In this document: positions 8,097 to 18,680 of the stretch, piece after piece
Numbering within the stretch: position 1 is the first letter of the stretch
Layout of the letters: each line of letters starts with the position of its first letter
Assembly: GCA_002239005.1 (NCBI GenBank)
Contig: MPNL01000012.1
Coordinates: 1-52,500 of the forward strand
DNA from: Truepera sp. bin119
GTDB taxonomy: Bacteria; Deinococcota; Deinococci; Deinococcales; Trueperaceae
Direction of reading: 5' to 3'
Length of the DNA: 52,500 nucleotides
Notes under the pieces: generated by a model
What the model was told of the DNA's origin: nothing
The model's database searches: none
What the model saw: only the letters and a program-made list of their open reading frames with translations
Translations under genes and position numbers: made by a program

Positions 8097-10331
8097 CTAC
8101 TTCTCGGGCCCGTCCAGCAGCCGCTCGCCCGCCCGCTCGGAGCGCACCAGCACCGTCCCCATTCGCCAGGTGAGGTCCTGGCCGAGGAGGTGCCGGACGA
8201 AGGCTGCGCGTACCTGCTCGACCCCTGAGACCTCAAGGCGCTCACCGAGGCGGTCGGCAAACGAAGGCCTGCCGTCGGTCCCCCCGGGTGTAAACCAGCG
8301 CCGCAGGGTCTGCTCCCCCACAGTCCAGACGACCTCGTGAACGAGGGTGCGGATGCGGACGCCGGTCAGGCCAGCAGCCTCGGCGGCGGCGGCGATGGCA
8401 GGGCCGCCGGCGGCGCCCCGGTAGATATCCTCCTCGGCCGCGCGCAACCCGGCGAACAGCTCCGCTGGCAGGGCCCCCGCTGGCAAGAGGCGGTGGAGCC
8501 GCTGTGTGTTCTCGGGATCCGGTTCGATCACGACCAGGGTGCCGGCAGCGGCGAGGAGCGGGACGACCGCCGCGAACAGCTCCGGCCCCGAGCCGCGCTT
8601 AAGCACCCCACGAGCGAAGATCACGTCGAACCGCAGGGCCGCCTCAGACCGCTGGACGACGAGGCGACCGACATCCCCGAGGGGCCCGGAGAGGACGACC
8701 GGTCGGTCGAGCCCGTCGAGTCGGTCCGCCAGCTTAAGCAGTAGTTCGGCCTCTTCGGGGGTCTCGGTGACAGCCCAGATCTGCCCCTCCGGGGCCCGCC
8801 GCAGGCCCTCCCAGGTGAACAGACCGCTGCCCGCTCCCAAGTCGAGGAGCAGGTGGTGCCGGAGCACTCCGGCGAGTTCGAAAGCGGTATCGCGGATCGC
8901 CGCCAGTCGCTCCCCTGCCCTGGAGGTAACCTGCGCCAGCCAGCTGTCGCGCACCCGGTCGGGCGGGCTCAGGGTGAGGATCTCACCGGGACCTGAGTTG
9001 CCGCGCTCGAGCAGCGCCGCGAGTTGGACCTCGCGCCGCCTTAAGACCTCGTCGCGGACGGTCCGCTCGTGCCCCTGCCCGGTCGGCTGATAGAACACGC
9101 GGCCCTGGAGGGGGCCAGGGAGGTACTGCTGTGCCACCCAGTGGTCCCGGTAGGCATGCGGGTAGAGGTAGCCCTGCCCGTGCCCGAAACCTTCGCTGTC
9201 GCGGCTGCCGTCCCGGAGGTGGGCGGGCACCTCGGCTTCGCGCTCGTGGTGGACGACCTCGAGCGCGTCGAAGAAGCCGAGGGTGCTATTGCTCTTCGGG
9301 GCGGTAGCGAGGTGGAGCGCCGCCTGCGAGAGGGCGAAGCGGCCCTCAGGAAGGCCCACATAGTCGAACGCCTGCGCCGCCGCCACCACCACCCCGAGGG
9401 CACCCGGGTCGGCTAGGCCGACATCCTCGCTGGCGAACACCAGCATGCGCCGGAAGATGAACCTGGGGTCCTCCCCAGCGTAGACCATGCGCGCCAGCCA
9501 GTACAGAGCAGCGTCCGGGTCGCTGCCCCGGAGGCTCTTGATGAAGGCGCTGATAGTGTCGAAGTGGGCGTCGCCGTCCCGGTCGTAGAGCACCGCACGG
9601 CGCTGGATGCTCTCCTCGGCGACCTCGCGGTCGATGTGGATCGCTCCACCCACCGCCAGCGTGGTCTCGACGGCCAGTTCGAGGGCGTTGAGGAGAGCCC
9701 GAGCATCGCCGTTAGCGACGTTCACCAGATGATCGAGGGCGTCCGCATCGAGTTCGACGCGGCGATCGCCGTAGCCCCGCTCGCGATCAGTCAGCGCTGC
9801 GGTCGCCACCTCGAAAAGCTCCGCCTCGGTGTGGGGCCTGAGCCGGAATATGCGGCTGCGGCTCACCAGCGCCTTGTTCACCTCGAAGTAGGGGTTCTCG
9901 GTGGTGGCACCGATCAGGACCACGGTACCGTTCTCCACCCAGGGGAGCAGCGCATCCTGCTGCGCCTTATTGAAGCGGTGCACCTCGTCGATGAAGAGAA
10001 TGGTGCGGCGCCCCTCGAAGTCGAGTCGTTGCCGCGCCGCCGCCACCGCCTCGCGAATCTCCTTGACGCCCGAAAGCACCGCATTGAGGCTTACGAAGGC
10101 GGCCTCGGTGGTGTTGGCGATGACCCGGGCCAGGGTGGTCTTGCCGGTGCCGGGCGGGCCGTGGAAGATCAGGCTGGCGAGGCGATCGGCCTGGATCGCC
10201 CGGCGCAGCAACCGCCCCGGCCCCAGGATGTGCGACTGGCCGATGAATTCGTCGAGGACCCGGGGGCGCATCCGGGCGGCAAGGGGCTCGGCATCGGTGG
10301 GGCGGAAGAGGGGATTGGAGGTGTCGGTCAC
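8097..10331 (-). CDS. rarA: RarA/MgsA AAA ATPase fused to methyltransferase-like domain
   Basis: Residues 1 to about 430 are a complete RarA (MgsA/WRNIP1 family) replication-associated ATPase. They include PLAARMRPRVLDEFIGQSHI, Walker A GPPGTGKTT (58-66), Walker B FIDEVHRF (113-120), sensor-1 GATTENP and the C-terminal tetramer region ending GQGYLYPH. RarA acts at stalled replication forks. Residues from about 430 to 744 are extra. They hold an S-adenosylmethionine-binding motif I (LLLDLGAGSG, 494-503) and a Rossmann-like continuation (DVIFARGVLKRG, AGTLVVIEPD), then a tail of unknown fold. Fusions of RarA to an 'unknown domain' are known in cyanobacteria; this resembles that architecture. 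The start is GTG at 10331 with no clear ribosome-binding site. There is no sign of a frameshift at the junction, so it is one chain. The role of the C-terminal domain is unknown. Confidence 0.9.
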   Translation of the reverse strand: MTDTSNPLFRPTDAEPLAARMRPRVLDEFIGQSHILGPGRLLRRAIQADRLASLIFHGPPGTGKTTLARVIANTTEAAFVSLNAVLSGVKEIREAVAAARQRLDFEGRRTILFIDEVHRFNKAQQDALLPWVENGTVVLIGATTENPYFEVNKALVSRSRIFRLRPHTEAELFEVATAALTDRERGYGDRRVELDADALDHLVNVANGDARALLNALELAVETTLAVGGAIHIDREVAEESIQRRAVLYDRDGDAHFDTISAFIKSLRGSDPDAALYWLARMVYAGEDPRFIFRRMLVFASEDVGLADPGALGVVVAAAQAFDYVGLPEGRFALSQAALHLATAPKSNSTLGFFDALEVVHHEREAEVPAHLRDGSRDSEGFGHGQGYLYPHAYRDHWVAQQYLPGPLQGRVFYQPTGQGHERTVRDEVLRRREVQLAALLERGNSGPGEILTLSPPDRVRDSWLAQVTSRAGERLAAIRDTAFELAGVLRHHLLLDLGAGSGLFTWEGLRRAPEGQIWAVTETPEEAELLLKLADRLDGLDRPVVLSGPLGDVGRLVVQRSEAALRFDVIFARGVLKRGSGPELFAAVVPLLAAAGTLVVIEPDPENTQRLHRLLPAGALPAELFAGLRAAEEDIYRGAAGGPAIAAAAEAAGLTGVRIRTLVHEVVWTVGEQTLRRWFTPGGTDGRPSFADRLGERLEVSGVEQVRAAFVRHLLGQDLTWRMGTVLVRSERAGERLLDGPEK

Positions 10332-12073: not shown

Positions 12074-12356
12074 ATGGCGAGTGAACGGATCACGAACTAC
12101 ACCGAGGCGCGCCAGAACCTCAAGTCGGTGTATAGACAGCGTGACCGAGGATCGCGTACCGGTGATCATCACGCGGACGACGGGCGACCCGGTGATCATG
12201 CTGGCCAAGGCCGAGTACGACGCGACGATGGAGACGTTCCACCTGCTGCGCTCACCGCGAAACGCGGAACGCCTGCGCGACGCAATTGCCGATATCGAAG
12301 CGGGCAACGTGGTGCATGCCGACCTCGTCGATGGGGAGATCGCAGAGCGGCAGTGA
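12074..12356 (+). pseudogene. frameshifted YefM-family antitoxin
   Basis: The ATG at 12074 begins a typical YefM N terminus (SERITNYTEARQNLKSV), but the rest of the protein is in another frame (IDSVTEDRVPVIITRTTGDP, then HLLRSPRNAERLRDAI). An extra base near 12130, in the run 'gtgtatagac', explains the switch. Repaired, the protein would be about 93 residues, normal for the Phd/YefM fold that binds DNA and neutralises YoeB. The stop overlaps the yoeB GTG start by four bases (GTGA), the usual coupled arrangement. It could be a sequencing indel, but the toxin is broken as well, so decay of the whole module is likely. Confidence 0.75.
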
Positions 12357-13918: not shown

Positions 13919-14457
13919 CCCACCATAGTCGAGTTGTAACACCATCGCCTTGAGGTAGCCGGATTCCGCCGCGTCGGATGCACCAGATGGTCGGGCGTTG
14001 CGCCGGCCGCGCACAGCGCGCAGTGTCAAGCTGGTGCAAGCGCATCCGGTATGTGCCGCTTGTTTTGTTAACCCCGATGGCGCGCTCCAGTAATCGGTAG
14101 CAGGACTACTACGACCAGCGCAGAGCGGTGGAACGAGTCAACAGCCGGTTGGCTGGCGGGTTCGGAAGCCCTGGCAAAGATGCGGCTGCTCGTCCCATGG
14201 CGATGACTCTCATGCTGACGATGGCGCCGATACGCGATGGCGCCTGCTTACTTCCCGCTTGCCTGATGGCGGGTAGCCATCATGTCAATCGGATGAAGTG
14301 TTTAAGGGTATTCTGGTCCACGGGGTACCTCCACACGAATGGGCTTGGTACCCCCATCATTTGTGGACACAGAATTAAACACAAGATACGTTACGCCACC
14401 CATCACCCCTCAGGTTTGATCGCTTCAGTGTCAGCACGCCTGTTCTGATATTTTTGA
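13919..14457. other. intergenic DNA around transposase remnant
   Basis: Apart from the transposase remnant at 14104-14265, no gene, tRNA or array is visible. The last 100 bases become AT-rich ahead of the merR promoter. Confidence 0.3.
14104..14265 (+). pseudogene. C-terminal DDE transposase remnant
   Basis: The frame reads DYYDQRRAVERVNSRLAGGF and later PMAMTLMLTMAPIRDG. This resembles the C terminus of IS4/IS1182-type DDE transposases ('...RRtAVERvnsRL...fG.e...vRGl.KMrl...aLalmLamAl.r'), including the catalytic Glu of AVERVNSR. The expected KMRLLV segment is in a neighbouring frame, so it is frameshifted. The rest of the gene and the ends are gone. Confidence 0.5.
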
Positions 14458-14492
14458 GACACTTGTTTTTATCATTGCTAGTGTCGTATACT
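14458..14492 (+). promoter_or_regulatory. leaderless merR promoter with embedded operator dyad
   Basis: TTGTTT (14463-14468) and TATACT (14487-14492) are separated by 18 bp. The start codon ATG (14500) falls where transcription should begin, so the mRNA would be leaderless. GACACT (14458-14463) and AGTGTC (14480-14485) form a perfect 6-bp dyad with a 16-nt centre filling the -35/-10 spacer. This is the classical position of a MerR-family operator. Confidence 0.7.
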
Positions 14493-14499
14493 GTCCGCG

Positions 14500-14931
14500 A
14501 TGTCGAATGAAGACGATCGAATCGGGATAGACGAGCTGTGTGCCTTGGTGAACCTGCCCCGGCGTACCGTCCGTTACTACATCCAGGAGAGACTCGTTGA
14601 TCGGCCCGCGGGGGCCAAGCGCGGTGCCTACTACACGAAGCGTCACGTTGAGCAACTGATGACGATTCGCACCTGGCAGCGCGCCGGCCTGAGCCTGGAA
14701 CGGATCCGCGAGTTGGTGTCCGACGAGGGAGAGAGCTCTTCTCCCCTGCCGCCGCCACGCCAGCGACGTCCCGGAGACGTGACGTTGCGTACCCACGTCA
14801 CGCTCGGCCCGGGGGTCGAACTAGTGATCGATCCGCAGGAGGCCGGCCTCAGCGCTGAGGCCGTGCGAGCGGTCGTCCGTCGAGCGGCATCACTCATCAA
14901 TGAAGCACGCAAGGAGGATACAGAGAGATGA
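14500..14931 (+). CDS. MerR-family transcriptional regulator
   Basis: This 143-residue protein has an N-terminal winged helix-turn-helix of MerR type (IGIDELCALVNLPRRTVRYY, then KRGAYYTKRHVEQLMTIRTW and GLSLERIRELV). A short linker rich in Ser and Pro leads to a C-terminal region ending VRAVVRRAASLINEARKE. The long dimer helix and metal-binding cysteines of classical MerR are absent, so the signal is probably not a metal. Its stop overlaps the start of the VIT/vWA gene by four bases (ATGA), showing translational coupling. The promoter upstream carries a dyad in its spacer, so the protein likely represses or remodels its own operon. MerR regulators next to VIT-vWA genes are a recurring pair, but their signal is not known to me. 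Confidence 0.88.
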   Translation: MSNEDDRIGIDELCALVNLPRRTVRYYIQERLVDRPAGAKRGAYYTKRHVEQLMTIRTWQRAGLSLERIRELVSDEGESSSPLPPPRQRRPGDVTLRTHVTLGPGVELVIDPQEAGLSAEAVRAVVRRAASLINEARKEDTER

Positions 14932-17129
14932 GATCGATCTTGGCAGCAACGATGGAGAGTGCTCAGGGACAGGTGGTGCTGGAGGAGGTCGGCATCGACG
15001 CCGCCGTCGACGACCTCATGACCGTGGTCAGCGTGCGTCAGCGCTACCGCAACCCCGGCACGAAGCACCTCGAGGCGGTCTACACCTTTCCTCTGCCCCT
15101 CGAGGCCGTCCTTCTGAACTTCGAAGTGGAGCTCGGCGATAGGAGGATGGCCGGCACGGTTATCGCCAAGCCCGATGCGGAAGCGCGGTACGAGGATGCC
15201 ATCACCGACGGCGACGCGGCGGTGCTCCTCGAACAGGCACAGCCCGGGCTCTACACCGCAAGCGTCGGCAACCTGGCTCCGGGTGAGACGGCGACCATCC
15301 GCTTCCGCTACGGGCTGCTGCTGCGCTGGAACGGCGACACCGTCCGGCTCATGATGCCGACGACCATCGCCCCACGGTACGGTGATCCATCTGCTGGCGG
15401 CCTTTCCCCACACCAGTCGCCGGAGTTCAGCTTCGACGCGGAACGTTCCTTTCACCTGCAGATCGCGGTCCGAGGCGTCCTGCACGACGCGCGCTGGTCA
15501 TCGCCTTCGCACGACATCGCCGTCACCCCGGACGGTCGGCAGACGGTGATTGAGATCGCCCGGCCCGCGGCCATGGATCGCGACTTCGTGCTGGAGGCTC
15601 GCTCCACCGGGACGGCTGGTACGCGGGCGCTGCTCGCCCGTGACGACGGGGACTGGGTGGTTCTGGCAAGCTTCCGGCCCGAGATACCCGACCTGAGCGA
15701 AGGCGCCGCGCACCGCAGTCTCAAGATCGTTGTGGATTGCTCTGGATCGATGGGCGGCGACTCGATCGCTCAGGTGCGGATCGCCGGGGAGCGGATACTC
15801 GACAGCCTGAGGCCTAGCGACCTGTTCGACATCGTCGCGTTCGGCACCGGGCACCGCGTGCTGTTCGACCGCGAGACGGCTGCATCCCGGACGAACGTCG
15901 CCCGAGCGCGGCGCTTCGTGCGCAGCCTGGACGCCAACATGGGAGGCACGGAGATCGCTGCCGCGCTGCGGGCCACCTACGGCATCGCCGGCGAACCCGG
16001 CATGCCCCACGACCTGCTGCTGATCACCGACGGCGAGGTGTGGGACACCGATGGCGCCGTCGCGGAAGCGCGTGCGTCGGGCCACCGCATCTTCACCGTC
16101 GGCGTGGGCAGCTCCGTCGCCGAACCGTTTGTCCGCGCCCTCGCCCAGGCGACCGGCGGCGCCTGCGAACTGGTAGCGCCGCGGGAGGGCATGGCTGAGC
16201 GCATCCACCGCCACTTCCAGCGGATCCTCGCCCCGCCCGCGAGCAGCGCTCGCGTCACCTGGCCGGCTCCCGTGCAGCGGGCGGTCCCCGATCCCCTGCC
16301 GCCGCCGTACCCCGGCGACACGATGCACCTGTTCGGATCGTTCGCGGAGCGGCCTCAGGGCCCGGTCGTCCTCGAGCTGGAGCTTTCCGACAGCCATACG
16401 ATCACCCACCGGATGGAGATCGACGCATTGCCGACCGACACCGCCGACGTGGAACGAACGAGTGCTACCCGATCCGACTTGGCACGCATGGGCGCCGCTC
16501 AGCGGTTGCCAACGATTGATGATGAGGCGGCGACGGAGTTCGCCGTTCGCTATCAACTCCTCTCCGAGTGGACGGACTATCTGGTCGTCCACGTGCGAGC
16601 GGAGGCCGACAAAGCGACCGAGTTGCCGAGCCTGGTCAAGGTCCCGCAGGTGATCGCCGCGGGCTGGCATGGGCTCGGAACCGTACACGAAGCGCCGCAG
16701 GAGCACGTTCTCAGCGGCACCGTAGAGTCGGCCCCGCGATTCATCCTCGAGGATCTCCACAAAGTAGATGAGTTGGTCTCGGACTCTAGGTCCGCGCCGA
16801 TCACCTCACTGATCGAATTCGTCGAGGCGCTGAACGCGCATCCGCTGCCAACCGTGCCGACGCTCGACGACCTGTGGGCCCGCGATCTCCCCGACGAGAT
16901 CATCGAAGACCTCTGGGAATTGGTCGAAAGCGACGATGACTCTAGGACCGTGGCGATCATCTTCCTGTACCTGCTGCGCGGATCACCGGCCGGCAGTACG
17001 CTGGATCGCCAGCAGCGCCGGCTGATCCTCAGCGCCTACAAGAAGCTGTCGCCCGACGCGGCAACGGTCGGTGCCGTCCGGCGCGTCTGGCAGGAGTGGA
17101 ATCCACCCGGCGGAGGCGGCCTCGCCTGA
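14928..17129 (+). CDS. VIT domain and von Willebrand A domain protein
   Basis: This is a 733-residue protein. Residues from about 1 to 135 form a VIT (vault/inter-alpha-trypsin) domain (VVSVRQRYRNPGTKHLEAVY, then TFPLPLEAVLLNFEVELGDR and VGNLAPGETATIRFRYGL). A vWA domain begins near 264 with the MIDAS metal motif D270-x-S272-x-S274 in VVDCSGSMGG. The second and third MIDAS segments are present as MGGTEIAAAL and LLITDGEVWDTD. The C-terminal part (about 430-733) includes TEFAVRYQLLSEWTDYLVV, usual for bacterial VIT-vWA proteins. There is no signal peptide, so it is probably cytoplasmic. It is coupled to the merR gene by an ATGA overlap. Its biochemical role is unknown; vWA domains commonly bind protein partners through Mg2+. 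Confidence 0.9.
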   Translation: MRSILAATMESAQGQVVLEEVGIDAAVDDLMTVVSVRQRYRNPGTKHLEAVYTFPLPLEAVLLNFEVELGDRRMAGTVIAKPDAEARYEDAITDGDAAVLLEQAQPGLYTASVGNLAPGETATIRFRYGLLLRWNGDTVRLMMPTTIAPRYGDPSAGGLSPHQSPEFSFDAERSFHLQIAVRGVLHDARWSSPSHDIAVTPDGRQTVIEIARPAAMDRDFVLEARSTGTAGTRALLARDDGDWVVLASFRPEIPDLSEGAAHRSLKIVVDCSGSMGGDSIAQVRIAGERILDSLRPSDLFDIVAFGTGHRVLFDRETAASRTNVARARRFVRSLDANMGGTEIAAALRATYGIAGEPGMPHDLLLITDGEVWDTDGAVAEARASGHRIFTVGVGSSVAEPFVRALAQATGGACELVAPREGMAERIHRHFQRILAPPASSARVTWPAPVQRAVPDPLPPPYPGDTMHLFGSFAERPQGPVVLELELSDSHTITHRMEIDALPTDTADVERTSATRSDLARMGAAQRLPTIDDEAATEFAVRYQLLSEWTDYLVVHVRAEADKATELPSLVKVPQVIAAGWHGLGTVHEAPQEHVLSGTVESAPRFILEDLHKVDELVSDSRSAPITSLIEFVEALNAHPLPTVPTLDDLWARDLPDEIIEDLWELVESDDDSRTVAIIFLYLLRGSPAGSTLDRQQRRLILSAYKKLSPDAATVGAVRRVWQEWNPPGGGGLA

Positions 17130-17418
17130 CCATGAACTGCGTGCCCGGACGTGCCGGCAGGAAGGCGCCGGCCGTTCGGGTACGCTGCGTCTGGAGGTTC
17201 AATGAGCTTACACGGATCGACTTCGGCTGGCCGACTCGGTCGAACTGGATCGGCCCGAGATCACATAGCCCGACAGTACCCGCCCGGCTACTGACGGCAC
17301 CTGCGGCGAATACCCTGCTCACCGTGCAGCGCGTGAACCGGTAGCTAGCGCCATCTCCTGCACCACTGCACCGCAAAGCGACTCGCCCGGATCAACAGAG
17401 TGTAGCACAGTGGCGCGC
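17130..17418. other. intergenic gap after VIT/vWA gene
   Basis: GCCGGC at 17153-17158 and again at 17167-17172 can pair as a short GC hairpin just after the VIT/vWA stop. No T tract follows. Nothing else is recognised. Confidence 0.25.
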
Positions 17419-18680
17419 ATGAGATTCACGCTGGTCACCATTATTGCCACTGTCGCAGCACTGGGTGCCTATGCCAGCACCGACCCGGAATCCGCCGGCC
17501 AGTCCACGTCGGCCGAGCCTCCGGGCACTATCGAACTCGGTGCCGGCGAGGCGGTGCAGATCCGTTCATTGCTGTCGCTCACCGGCGGGTCGTCGCCGGG
17601 AATGTCGTTGCACTACGTTGTCGAGTTGGCTGTGGGCGACTCCACGACATACATGGCCACGCGATCGAGCTCGGCGACCCAGTAGACAGCGGGTGCGCGC
17701 CGGAACGCGGCAGCGAGGGCGCGCAGCAGATCGCAGCCGACGCGCGGGTGATCGGCGTCATCGGTACTGGGTGCTCCGCGGCGGCGGTGGCGGCCTCGCC
17801 GCTGCTCAGCGCGGCGGGACTGGTGATGGTGTCGCCATCCAACACGTCGCCGGTGCTCACCTCGGACCTGGCTAGCAACGCCGGTCCCCACTACCACCCC
17901 GGCTACTTTCGCGTAGCCAACAACGATCTCTACAGCGCTATCGCCGTCGCCGACTTCGCCTATGGCGAACTCGGCCTGCGGCGGATGGCGGCTGTGCACG
18001 ACGGAGATCCGTACACGACGGGCCTGGTGAATGCCTTCGGCAATGCGTTCCGTGACCGCGGCGGAGAGGTGGTAGCCATCGCCGCTATCGACAAGGGCGA
18101 AACCGACATGACAGCGGTCCTTGCCGAATTCGCGGCCGCCGGACCGGATGGGCTGTTCTTCCCGTTGTTCGTTGCGGAGGGGTCGGCGTTCGCACAGCAG
18201 GCGCGGGCATTCGACGGCCTGCGGGAGGCGATGCTCATTACCGGCGACGCGATGCTGGAACTGGAGTTCCTGGGTGAGCCCCATTCCGAGGGAATCTACT
18301 TTGCCGGGCCGGAGCCAGCCCAAGGCACCAGCGTCAACATCGCAACCGGCAAGGACGTGGCCGCTGTGCTCGATGACTTCCAAGCCACCTACGGCACTAC
18401 TCCCACCTCGCTATACTGGGCGTACACCTATGACGCTACAACACTGTTGCTCAGCGCCATCGATTCGGTGGCTGTAGCGGAGGGCGGCAAGTTGTCCCTG
18501 GACCGGGAGGCGCTGCGTGTGGCGCTGACGGCCACACACGGCTTTCAGGGCATCACCGGCGTCCTGTCCTGCGACGCATTCGGAGACTGCGGTACAGGTC
18601 GCGTCAACATCTACTACCACCAGGACTCTGGTATCACCGATGCCGCGCAGCTTCCGGTGGTGTACCGGTTCTCCCCGTGA
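17419..18680 (+). pseudogene. frameshifted ABC branched-chain-type solute-binding protein
   Basis: The 5' part from ATG 17419 encodes a signal peptide (MRFTLVTIIATVAALGAYAS) and the start of a periplasmic-binding fold (VQIRSLLSLTGGSSPGMSL, then HYVVELAVGD). The frame then shifts near 17645. The continuing frame reads GHAIELGDPVDSGCAPERGS, VIGVIGTGCSAAAVAASPLL and onwards to VVYRFSP. Together they are a LivK/leucine-isoleucine-valine-type receptor of about 420 residues (Peripla_BP_6). No permease or ATPase genes are adjacent. The single shift may be real or an indel error; all the rest looks intact. Confidence 0.78.

What the first reader, a model, noticed from the sequence alone, without database searches (positions are those of the whole stretch)
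14458..17129. Leaderless merR-VIT/vWA operon with a dyad inside the -35/-10 spacer
GACACT-N16-AGTGTC lies within an 18-bp spacer promoter, and merR starts at the predicted +1. merR and the VIT/vWA gene overlap by four bases. The MerR lacks metal-type cysteines, so the inducing signal is unknown. A cytoplasmic VIT-vWA protein under a MerR switch could be a self-contained sensing and response unit.
Basis: partly seen in the sequence, partly recalled or inferred. Interest (0 to 1): 0.65.

Follow-up and report, generated by a model that had tools for sequence, protein, structure and literature searches.

The report
Self-regulating merR–VIT/vWA accessory gene pair
A two-gene bacterial unit, a small switch protein plus a large protein-binding protein related to human PARP4, carries its own conserved control site right at the start of its message, and in other bacteria it often sits next to anti-phage defence genes, so it may be an undescribed self-regulated defence or stress unit.

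Summary
GACACT-N16-AGTGTC is at 14458-14485; its extended form has one perfect copy in the genome. TTGTTT-N18-TATACT overlaps it, merR (14500-14931) begins 7 nt after the -10, and it overlaps the VIT/vWA gene (14928-17129) by four bases.

Correction: the dyad is not "inside" the spacer; its left arm abuts the -35. In relatives the conserved symmetry axis is at 14478: an ACAGT-N3-ACTGT-type palindrome between -35 and -10, flanked by extra half-sites.

75 of 83 homologous loci, from several phyla, keep merR beside VIT/vWA. The operator is present in 61 of 71 paired loci tested, in a held-out viral contig, and in none of five merR-less homologues. In 50 of 60 measurable cases the start codon lies 4-8 nt after the -10, almost never with a Shine-Dalgarno. 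Spacers of mostly 16-18 bp favour auto-repression over classical MerR activation. There is no constant third gene. Flanking genes are enriched in anti-phage defence genes over a same-genome control (8-10 of 59 versus 1 of 50).

Best reading: a mobile, auto-repressed MerR-VIT/vWA module, plausibly defence-linked. Signal, target and transcription start are untested.

The parts
14458..14463 (.). outer-left half-site GACACT (abuts and overlaps the -35 by one base); left arm of the reported dyad
   Evidence: conserved CACTT/CAGTT in the family profile, positions 0-4
14463..14468 (+). -35-like element TTGTTT
   Evidence: profile positions 3-8; promoter weighting
14471..14485 (.). inner operator palindrome, family consensus ACAGT-N3-ACTGT, axis at 14478; in the window left arm degenerate (ATCATT 14471-14476), right arm AGTGTC 14480-14485
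   Evidence: symmetric on both strands in most relatives
14487..14492 (+). -10 element TATACT, 18-bp spacer
14490..14495 (.). outer-right half-site ACTGTC, overlapping the -10
   Evidence: read; the same element lies in front of the start codon in relatives (e.g. L054 TAACTGTCATG)
14500..14931 (+). merR: 143-aa MerR-family regulator (winged HTH 1-77, linker, beta-hairpin 98-110, C-terminal helix 119-142)
   Evidence: PF13411 E 1e-15; model pLDDT 84; 36-85% identity to 58 aligned orthologues
14928..17129 (+). VIT/vWA protein, 733 aa: VIT 18-128, vWA with intact MIDAS (D270, S272, S274, T341, D368), beta-rich domain to ~570, disordered 581-624, helical C-terminal domain 628-724
   Evidence: PF08487 E 4e-26, PF13768 E 4e-14; model pLDDT 86.8; MIDAS residues in 66 of 66

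Best explanation
The locus is an accessory, horizontally mobile two-gene operon, merR-VIT/vWA. Shown by sequence: the genes are coupled and co-inherited, and an operator palindrome sits between -35 and -10 of a promoter whose -10 lies 4-8 nt before the first codon, so the message is predicted to start at or within a few bases of the merR ATG. Inferred: the MerR dimer binds the ACAGT-N3-ACTGT palindrome (and neighbouring half-sites) and represses its own operon, because the spacer is already near-optimal (mostly 16-18 bp) and the half-sites cover -35 and -10. A signal, which may reach MerR through its short hairpin-helix tail or through the VIT/vWA protein, relieves repression and gives a burst of both proteins. 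The VIT/vWA protein, a cytosolic metal-dependent adhesion (MIDAS) module with no catalytic domain, acts as a protein-binding scaffold or sensor. The genomic setting suggests a role in anti-phage defence or a related stress; this last step is a hypothesis.
For: Pair retained in 75 of 83 loci, including two plasmids, with correlated MerR and VIT/vWA distances (Mantel r 0.79, largest of 999 permutations 0.09). Operator in 61 of 71 paired loci, in a held-out viral-contig pair (L193, 26.1 bits, ATG 4-5 nt after the -10), and still at the operon head in L065 where gene order is VIT-then-merR. Operator absent from five merR-less homologues. Almost no other sites above 15 bits in 1.27 Mb scanned. Start codon 4-8 nt after the -10 in 50 of 60; Shine-Dalgarno core in 2 of 51 with a short leader. 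Spacer 16-18 bp in 40 of 56, against 19-20 bp in classical MerR promoters (PMC8113463). Defence neighbours, PADLOC E<=1e-60: ZorA1 (L073, with ZorB1 beside it), type III MTase (L084, with a type III REase beside it), HmaA (L049), DUF499 (L071), type I MTase (L096, L098), TmtA (L047), AbiLi (L109), plus two families whose protein was not resolved; control 1 of 50. Fisher p 0.01-0.04 by protein, 0.007-0.03 by locus. Patchy: only this genome among 111 of its phylum has the close homologue (next best 31% identity), and 2 of 200 in one family of Pseudomonadota.
Against: No expression, binding or phage data. The window copy itself has no defence neighbour. PADLOC hits are single models, not complete systems, and accessory genes in general cluster in islands; the control was other MerR genes, not other island-borne genes. 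About 10 of 71 paired loci lack a clear operator at the threshold, and about 9 have a longer leader (e.g. L044, about 64 nt). The helical C-terminal domain has no assigned function.
Confidence: 0.6

Rival explanations
1. Classical MerR activator: MerR sits on the spacer at all times and, on binding a small molecule, kinks and untwists the DNA to activate the operon.
For: The conserved palindrome lies between -35 and -10 as in CueR/CadR/BmrR-type promoters, and the wHTH matches CadR, PbrR and CueR structures.
Against: Spacers are mostly 16-18 bp, not 19-20 (PMC8113463); no metal cysteines; no effector domain, only a hairpin and one helix after the wHTH.
Confidence: 0.22
2. A stress or homeostasis module unrelated to phage, riding in genomic islands; the defence neighbours are only fellow passengers.
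For: No catalytic effector domain in VIT/vWA; the window copy and many others lie among metabolic genes; no PADLOC model for the VIT/vWA protein.
Against: Enrichment over a same-genome control across unrelated defence types and several lineages.
Confidence: 0.3
3. The dyad and leaderless start are chance features of an AT-rich intergenic patch.
For: The generic promoter scan finds nothing; one perfect 12-base dyad in 3 Mb is not by itself improbable.
Against: Leave-relatives-out profile score above all 1000 shuffles, operator in 61 of 71 relatives and in the held-out L193.
Confidence: 0.02

Closest known systems
MerR family, CueR/CadR/PbrR group
   Same: Winged HTH (residues 1-77) and operator palindrome between -35 and -10.
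   Different: No metal cysteines, no effector domain, spacer mostly 16-18 bp, short hairpin-helix tail, leaderless self-promoter.
Eukaryotic cytosolic VIT-vWA proteins: PARP4 (vault PARP); by fold inter-alpha-trypsin inhibitor heavy chain 1
   Same: VIT-vWA block and the following beta domain: PARP4 E 6.7e-74 over profile positions 4-566; ITIH1 top Foldseek hit, E 8e-34.
   Different: No ADP-ribosyltransferase or BRCT part, no secretion signal; bacterial helical C-terminal domain.
TIGR03788 marine proteobacterial sortase target protein
   Same: VIT/vWA core, partial match E 3e-71.
   Different: 240.7 bits against a cut-off of 551.7; no LPXTG/sortase context or membrane segment seen; MerR partner instead.
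Leaderless -10-adjacent genes of Deinococcus-Thermus (PMC12340547)
   Same: -10 element directly in front of the ORF.
   Different: Here the arrangement travels with the gene pair into other phyla and is combined with an operator.

Membership tests
MerR transcription factor family | N-terminal MerR winged HTH | tested here: met
   PF13411 58 bits, cut-off 21.6; Foldseek CadR E 6e-5
MerR transcription factor family | Dyad operator between -35 and -10 | tested here: met
   Conserved palindrome with axis at 14478; binding not tested
Metal-sensing MerR activators (CueR/CadR/MerR) | Metal-binding cysteines | tested here: not met
   0-1 Cys in 60 of 72; the only widespread Cys is in the HTH
Metal-sensing MerR activators (CueR/CadR/MerR) | 19-20-bp promoter spacer | tested here: not met
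   18 bp in the window; 16-18 bp in 40 of 56
VIT/vWA proteins | VIT domain followed by a vWA domain with MIDAS | tested here: met
   56 of 56 have both; MIDAS residues 66 of 66
Sortase-target VIT/vWA (TIGR03788) | Score above the equivalog cut-off | tested here: not met
   240.7 against 551.65 bits
Known anti-phage defence systems (PADLOC 2023) | Match to a model of a known or candidate system | tested here: not met
   VIT/vWA: none. MerR: only a weak HTH match to mad1, 28.8 bits, with no MADS operon around it
Anti-phage defence system (functional sense) | Confers protection from phage | not testable with these tools
   Only neighbourhood enrichment is available

The most novel reading that the evidence does not exclude
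merR-VIT/vWA is an undescribed, self-repressed two-gene anti-phage (or abortive) module in which a cytosolic MIDAS adhesion protein, related to the VIT-vWA core of vault PARP4, is the sensor or effector and is released by a leaderless MerR switch.
Probability: 0.25. Interest if true: 0.85.

Novelty: new variant of a known kind. Interest (0 to 1): 0.6.

Why it matters
VIT-vWA proteins are best known from animals (PARP4, inter-alpha-trypsin inhibitor), and no bacterial role turned up in the papers searched. A pair with its own conserved, compact control site gives a direct handle: the operator, the promoter and both proteins are defined, so the signal and the function can be screened. If the defence association is functional, it adds a new kind of module; if not, it is still a clear case of an operator and leaderless start that travel with a gene pair between phyla.

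Tried and rejected
Full-length MerR search in near relatives gave only unrelated MerRs. MADS membership (mad1/mad2 matches) rejected: a 60-aa HTH match and ordinary N6-methyltransferases. Recurrent third gene: clustering of neighbours found none beyond a WYL-regulator cluster near 9 loci. Additional effector domains in VIT/vWA: none of note in 56 members. Transposase remnant upstream of the window operon: not recognised by Pfam as an ORF; only the peptide YYDQRRAVERVNSRL looks transposase-like. 16S for host placement: not in the assembly. Literature searches for a described MerR-VIT/vWA pair found none. First neighbour scan (set A4) was hand-picked, so it was replaced by an automatic rule with a control.

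Full report
Observation. The sequence reads as described: GACACT 14458-14463, AGTGTC 14480-14485, TTGTTT 14463-14468, TATACT 14487-14492, ATG 14500. merR (143 aa) and the VIT/vWA gene (733 aa) overlap by four bases. Pfam gives MerR_1 for the first and VIT plus vWA for the second. The extended dyad has one perfect match in the 3.2-Mb genome.

Host. The window lies in a 3.2-Mb, 91-contig assembly without a 16S gene. Its phylum group of 111 genomes contains DdrB in 9 members, and among the named controls only Deinobacterium chartae rings, which points to Deinococcota; this is an inference. Only this genome in that group has the close homologue, and its nearest relatives are in MAGs labelled Spirochaetia (75% identity over the aligned columns) and Rhodospirillales, so horizontal transfer is likely, with the caution that MAG labels can be wrong.

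Distribution of the pair. tblastn found the pair on plasmids of Massilia sp. H6 and Aquabacterium olei. A scan of 84,980 species genomes with an alignment of the three VIT/vWA proteins kept 80 loci. With the window and the two plasmids, 75 of 83 encode the MerR beside VIT/vWA; three of the other eight are contig edges or a truncated gene (L056, L125, L090). The tree spans Pseudomonadota, Thermodesulfobacteriota, Verrucomicrobiota and single MAGs of Myxococcota, Planctomycetota and Spirochaetota. MerR and VIT/vWA distances correlate (r 0.79). ATGA overlap is possible in 37 of 74. One genome, Polynucleobacter sp. GWA2_45_21, carries three copies (L073, L079, L083).

Operator. A gapless EM on 65 non-redundant upstream regions converged on one 40-bp motif. 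Its symmetry axis is at position 18 (window 14478), far stronger than the axis of the reported dyad. Minus-strand matches share that centre in most loci. The window scores 15.2 bits with itself and its two nearest relatives left out, above all of 1000 shuffles; 58 of 65 loci beat all 30 of their own shuffles. The EM motif was fitted to these sequences, so the held-out tests carry the weight: the viral-contig pair L193 scores 26.1 bits at the merR start, L065 keeps a site (16.6 bits) in front of VIT although merR comes second there, and five merR-less homologues have none.

Leaderless start. Of 61 sites scoring 15 bits or more, 60 have a measurable start; 50 lie 4-8 nt after the -10 and one at -2; of these 51 only two have a Shine-Dalgarno core. 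Others have leaders of 18-64 nt, as in Massilia (L044). Leaderless expression with the -10 next to the ORF is common in Deinococcus-Thermus (PMC12340547).

Mode of control. Best -35/-10 pairs give spacers of 16-18 bp in 40 of 56 loci. Classical MerR activators act on 19-20-bp spacers (PMC8113463). This, with half-sites that cover -35 and -10, favours repression; it is an inference.

Proteins. The MerR model has a wHTH, a linker, a beta-hairpin and one helix, with no effector domain; the wHTH matches CadR, PbrR and CueR. The VIT/vWA protein has an intact MIDAS in 66 of 66 sequences; the window copy shows no stretch hydrophobic enough for a membrane segment, and 13 of 66 relatives show one weak one. 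Its best solved sequence relative is human PARP4, and its best fold match is inter-alpha-trypsin inhibitor heavy chain 1. No catalytic domain was found.

Neighbourhood. No third gene is constant. Taking the nearest ORF of 200 aa or more on each side in 32 genomes by an automatic rule, 8 to 10 of 59 proteins match PADLOC models at E<=1e-60; around other MerR genes of the same genomes 1 of 50 does, a DinG-like helicase. Fisher p is 0.01-0.04. This is modest evidence, and the window copy itself does not show it.

Conclusion. The unit is a self-controlled accessory pair. Its function is open; defence is the most interesting reading that the data allow, not a demonstrated one.

Noticed in passing
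L073, L084, L049, L071, L047, L096, L098, L109: Anti-phage defence genes beside the pair in unrelated genomes (Zorya, type III and type I R-M, HmaA, DUF499, TmtA, AbiLi).
   Followed up: yes
L089, L091, L101: VIT/vWA homologues without merR and without the operator; a WYL-domain regulator-like gene lies nearby, possibly replacing MerR.
   Followed up: partly
L065:2472-4881: Gene order swapped (VIT then merR), operator still at the operon head.
   Followed up: yes
L193: The pair with its operator lies in an IMG/VR viral contig (60,950 bases).
   Followed up: partly
window 14108-14160: Peptide YYDQRRAVERVNSRL in frame 3 resembles the end of a transposase; possible insertion-sequence remnant just upstream of the operon.
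   Followed up: partly
window 12081-12356: Phd/YefM-type antitoxin ORF, PF02604 E 7e-13; no partner toxin checked.
   Followed up: no
window 17410-18680: Periplasmic binding protein (Peripla_BP_6) that looks split: a short ORF at 17410-17685 and the main domain from 17748; may be a frameshift.
   Followed up: no
window 8097-10331: Rar A/MgsA-type AAA+ ATPase with an extra C-terminal region of about 300 aa.
   Followed up: no
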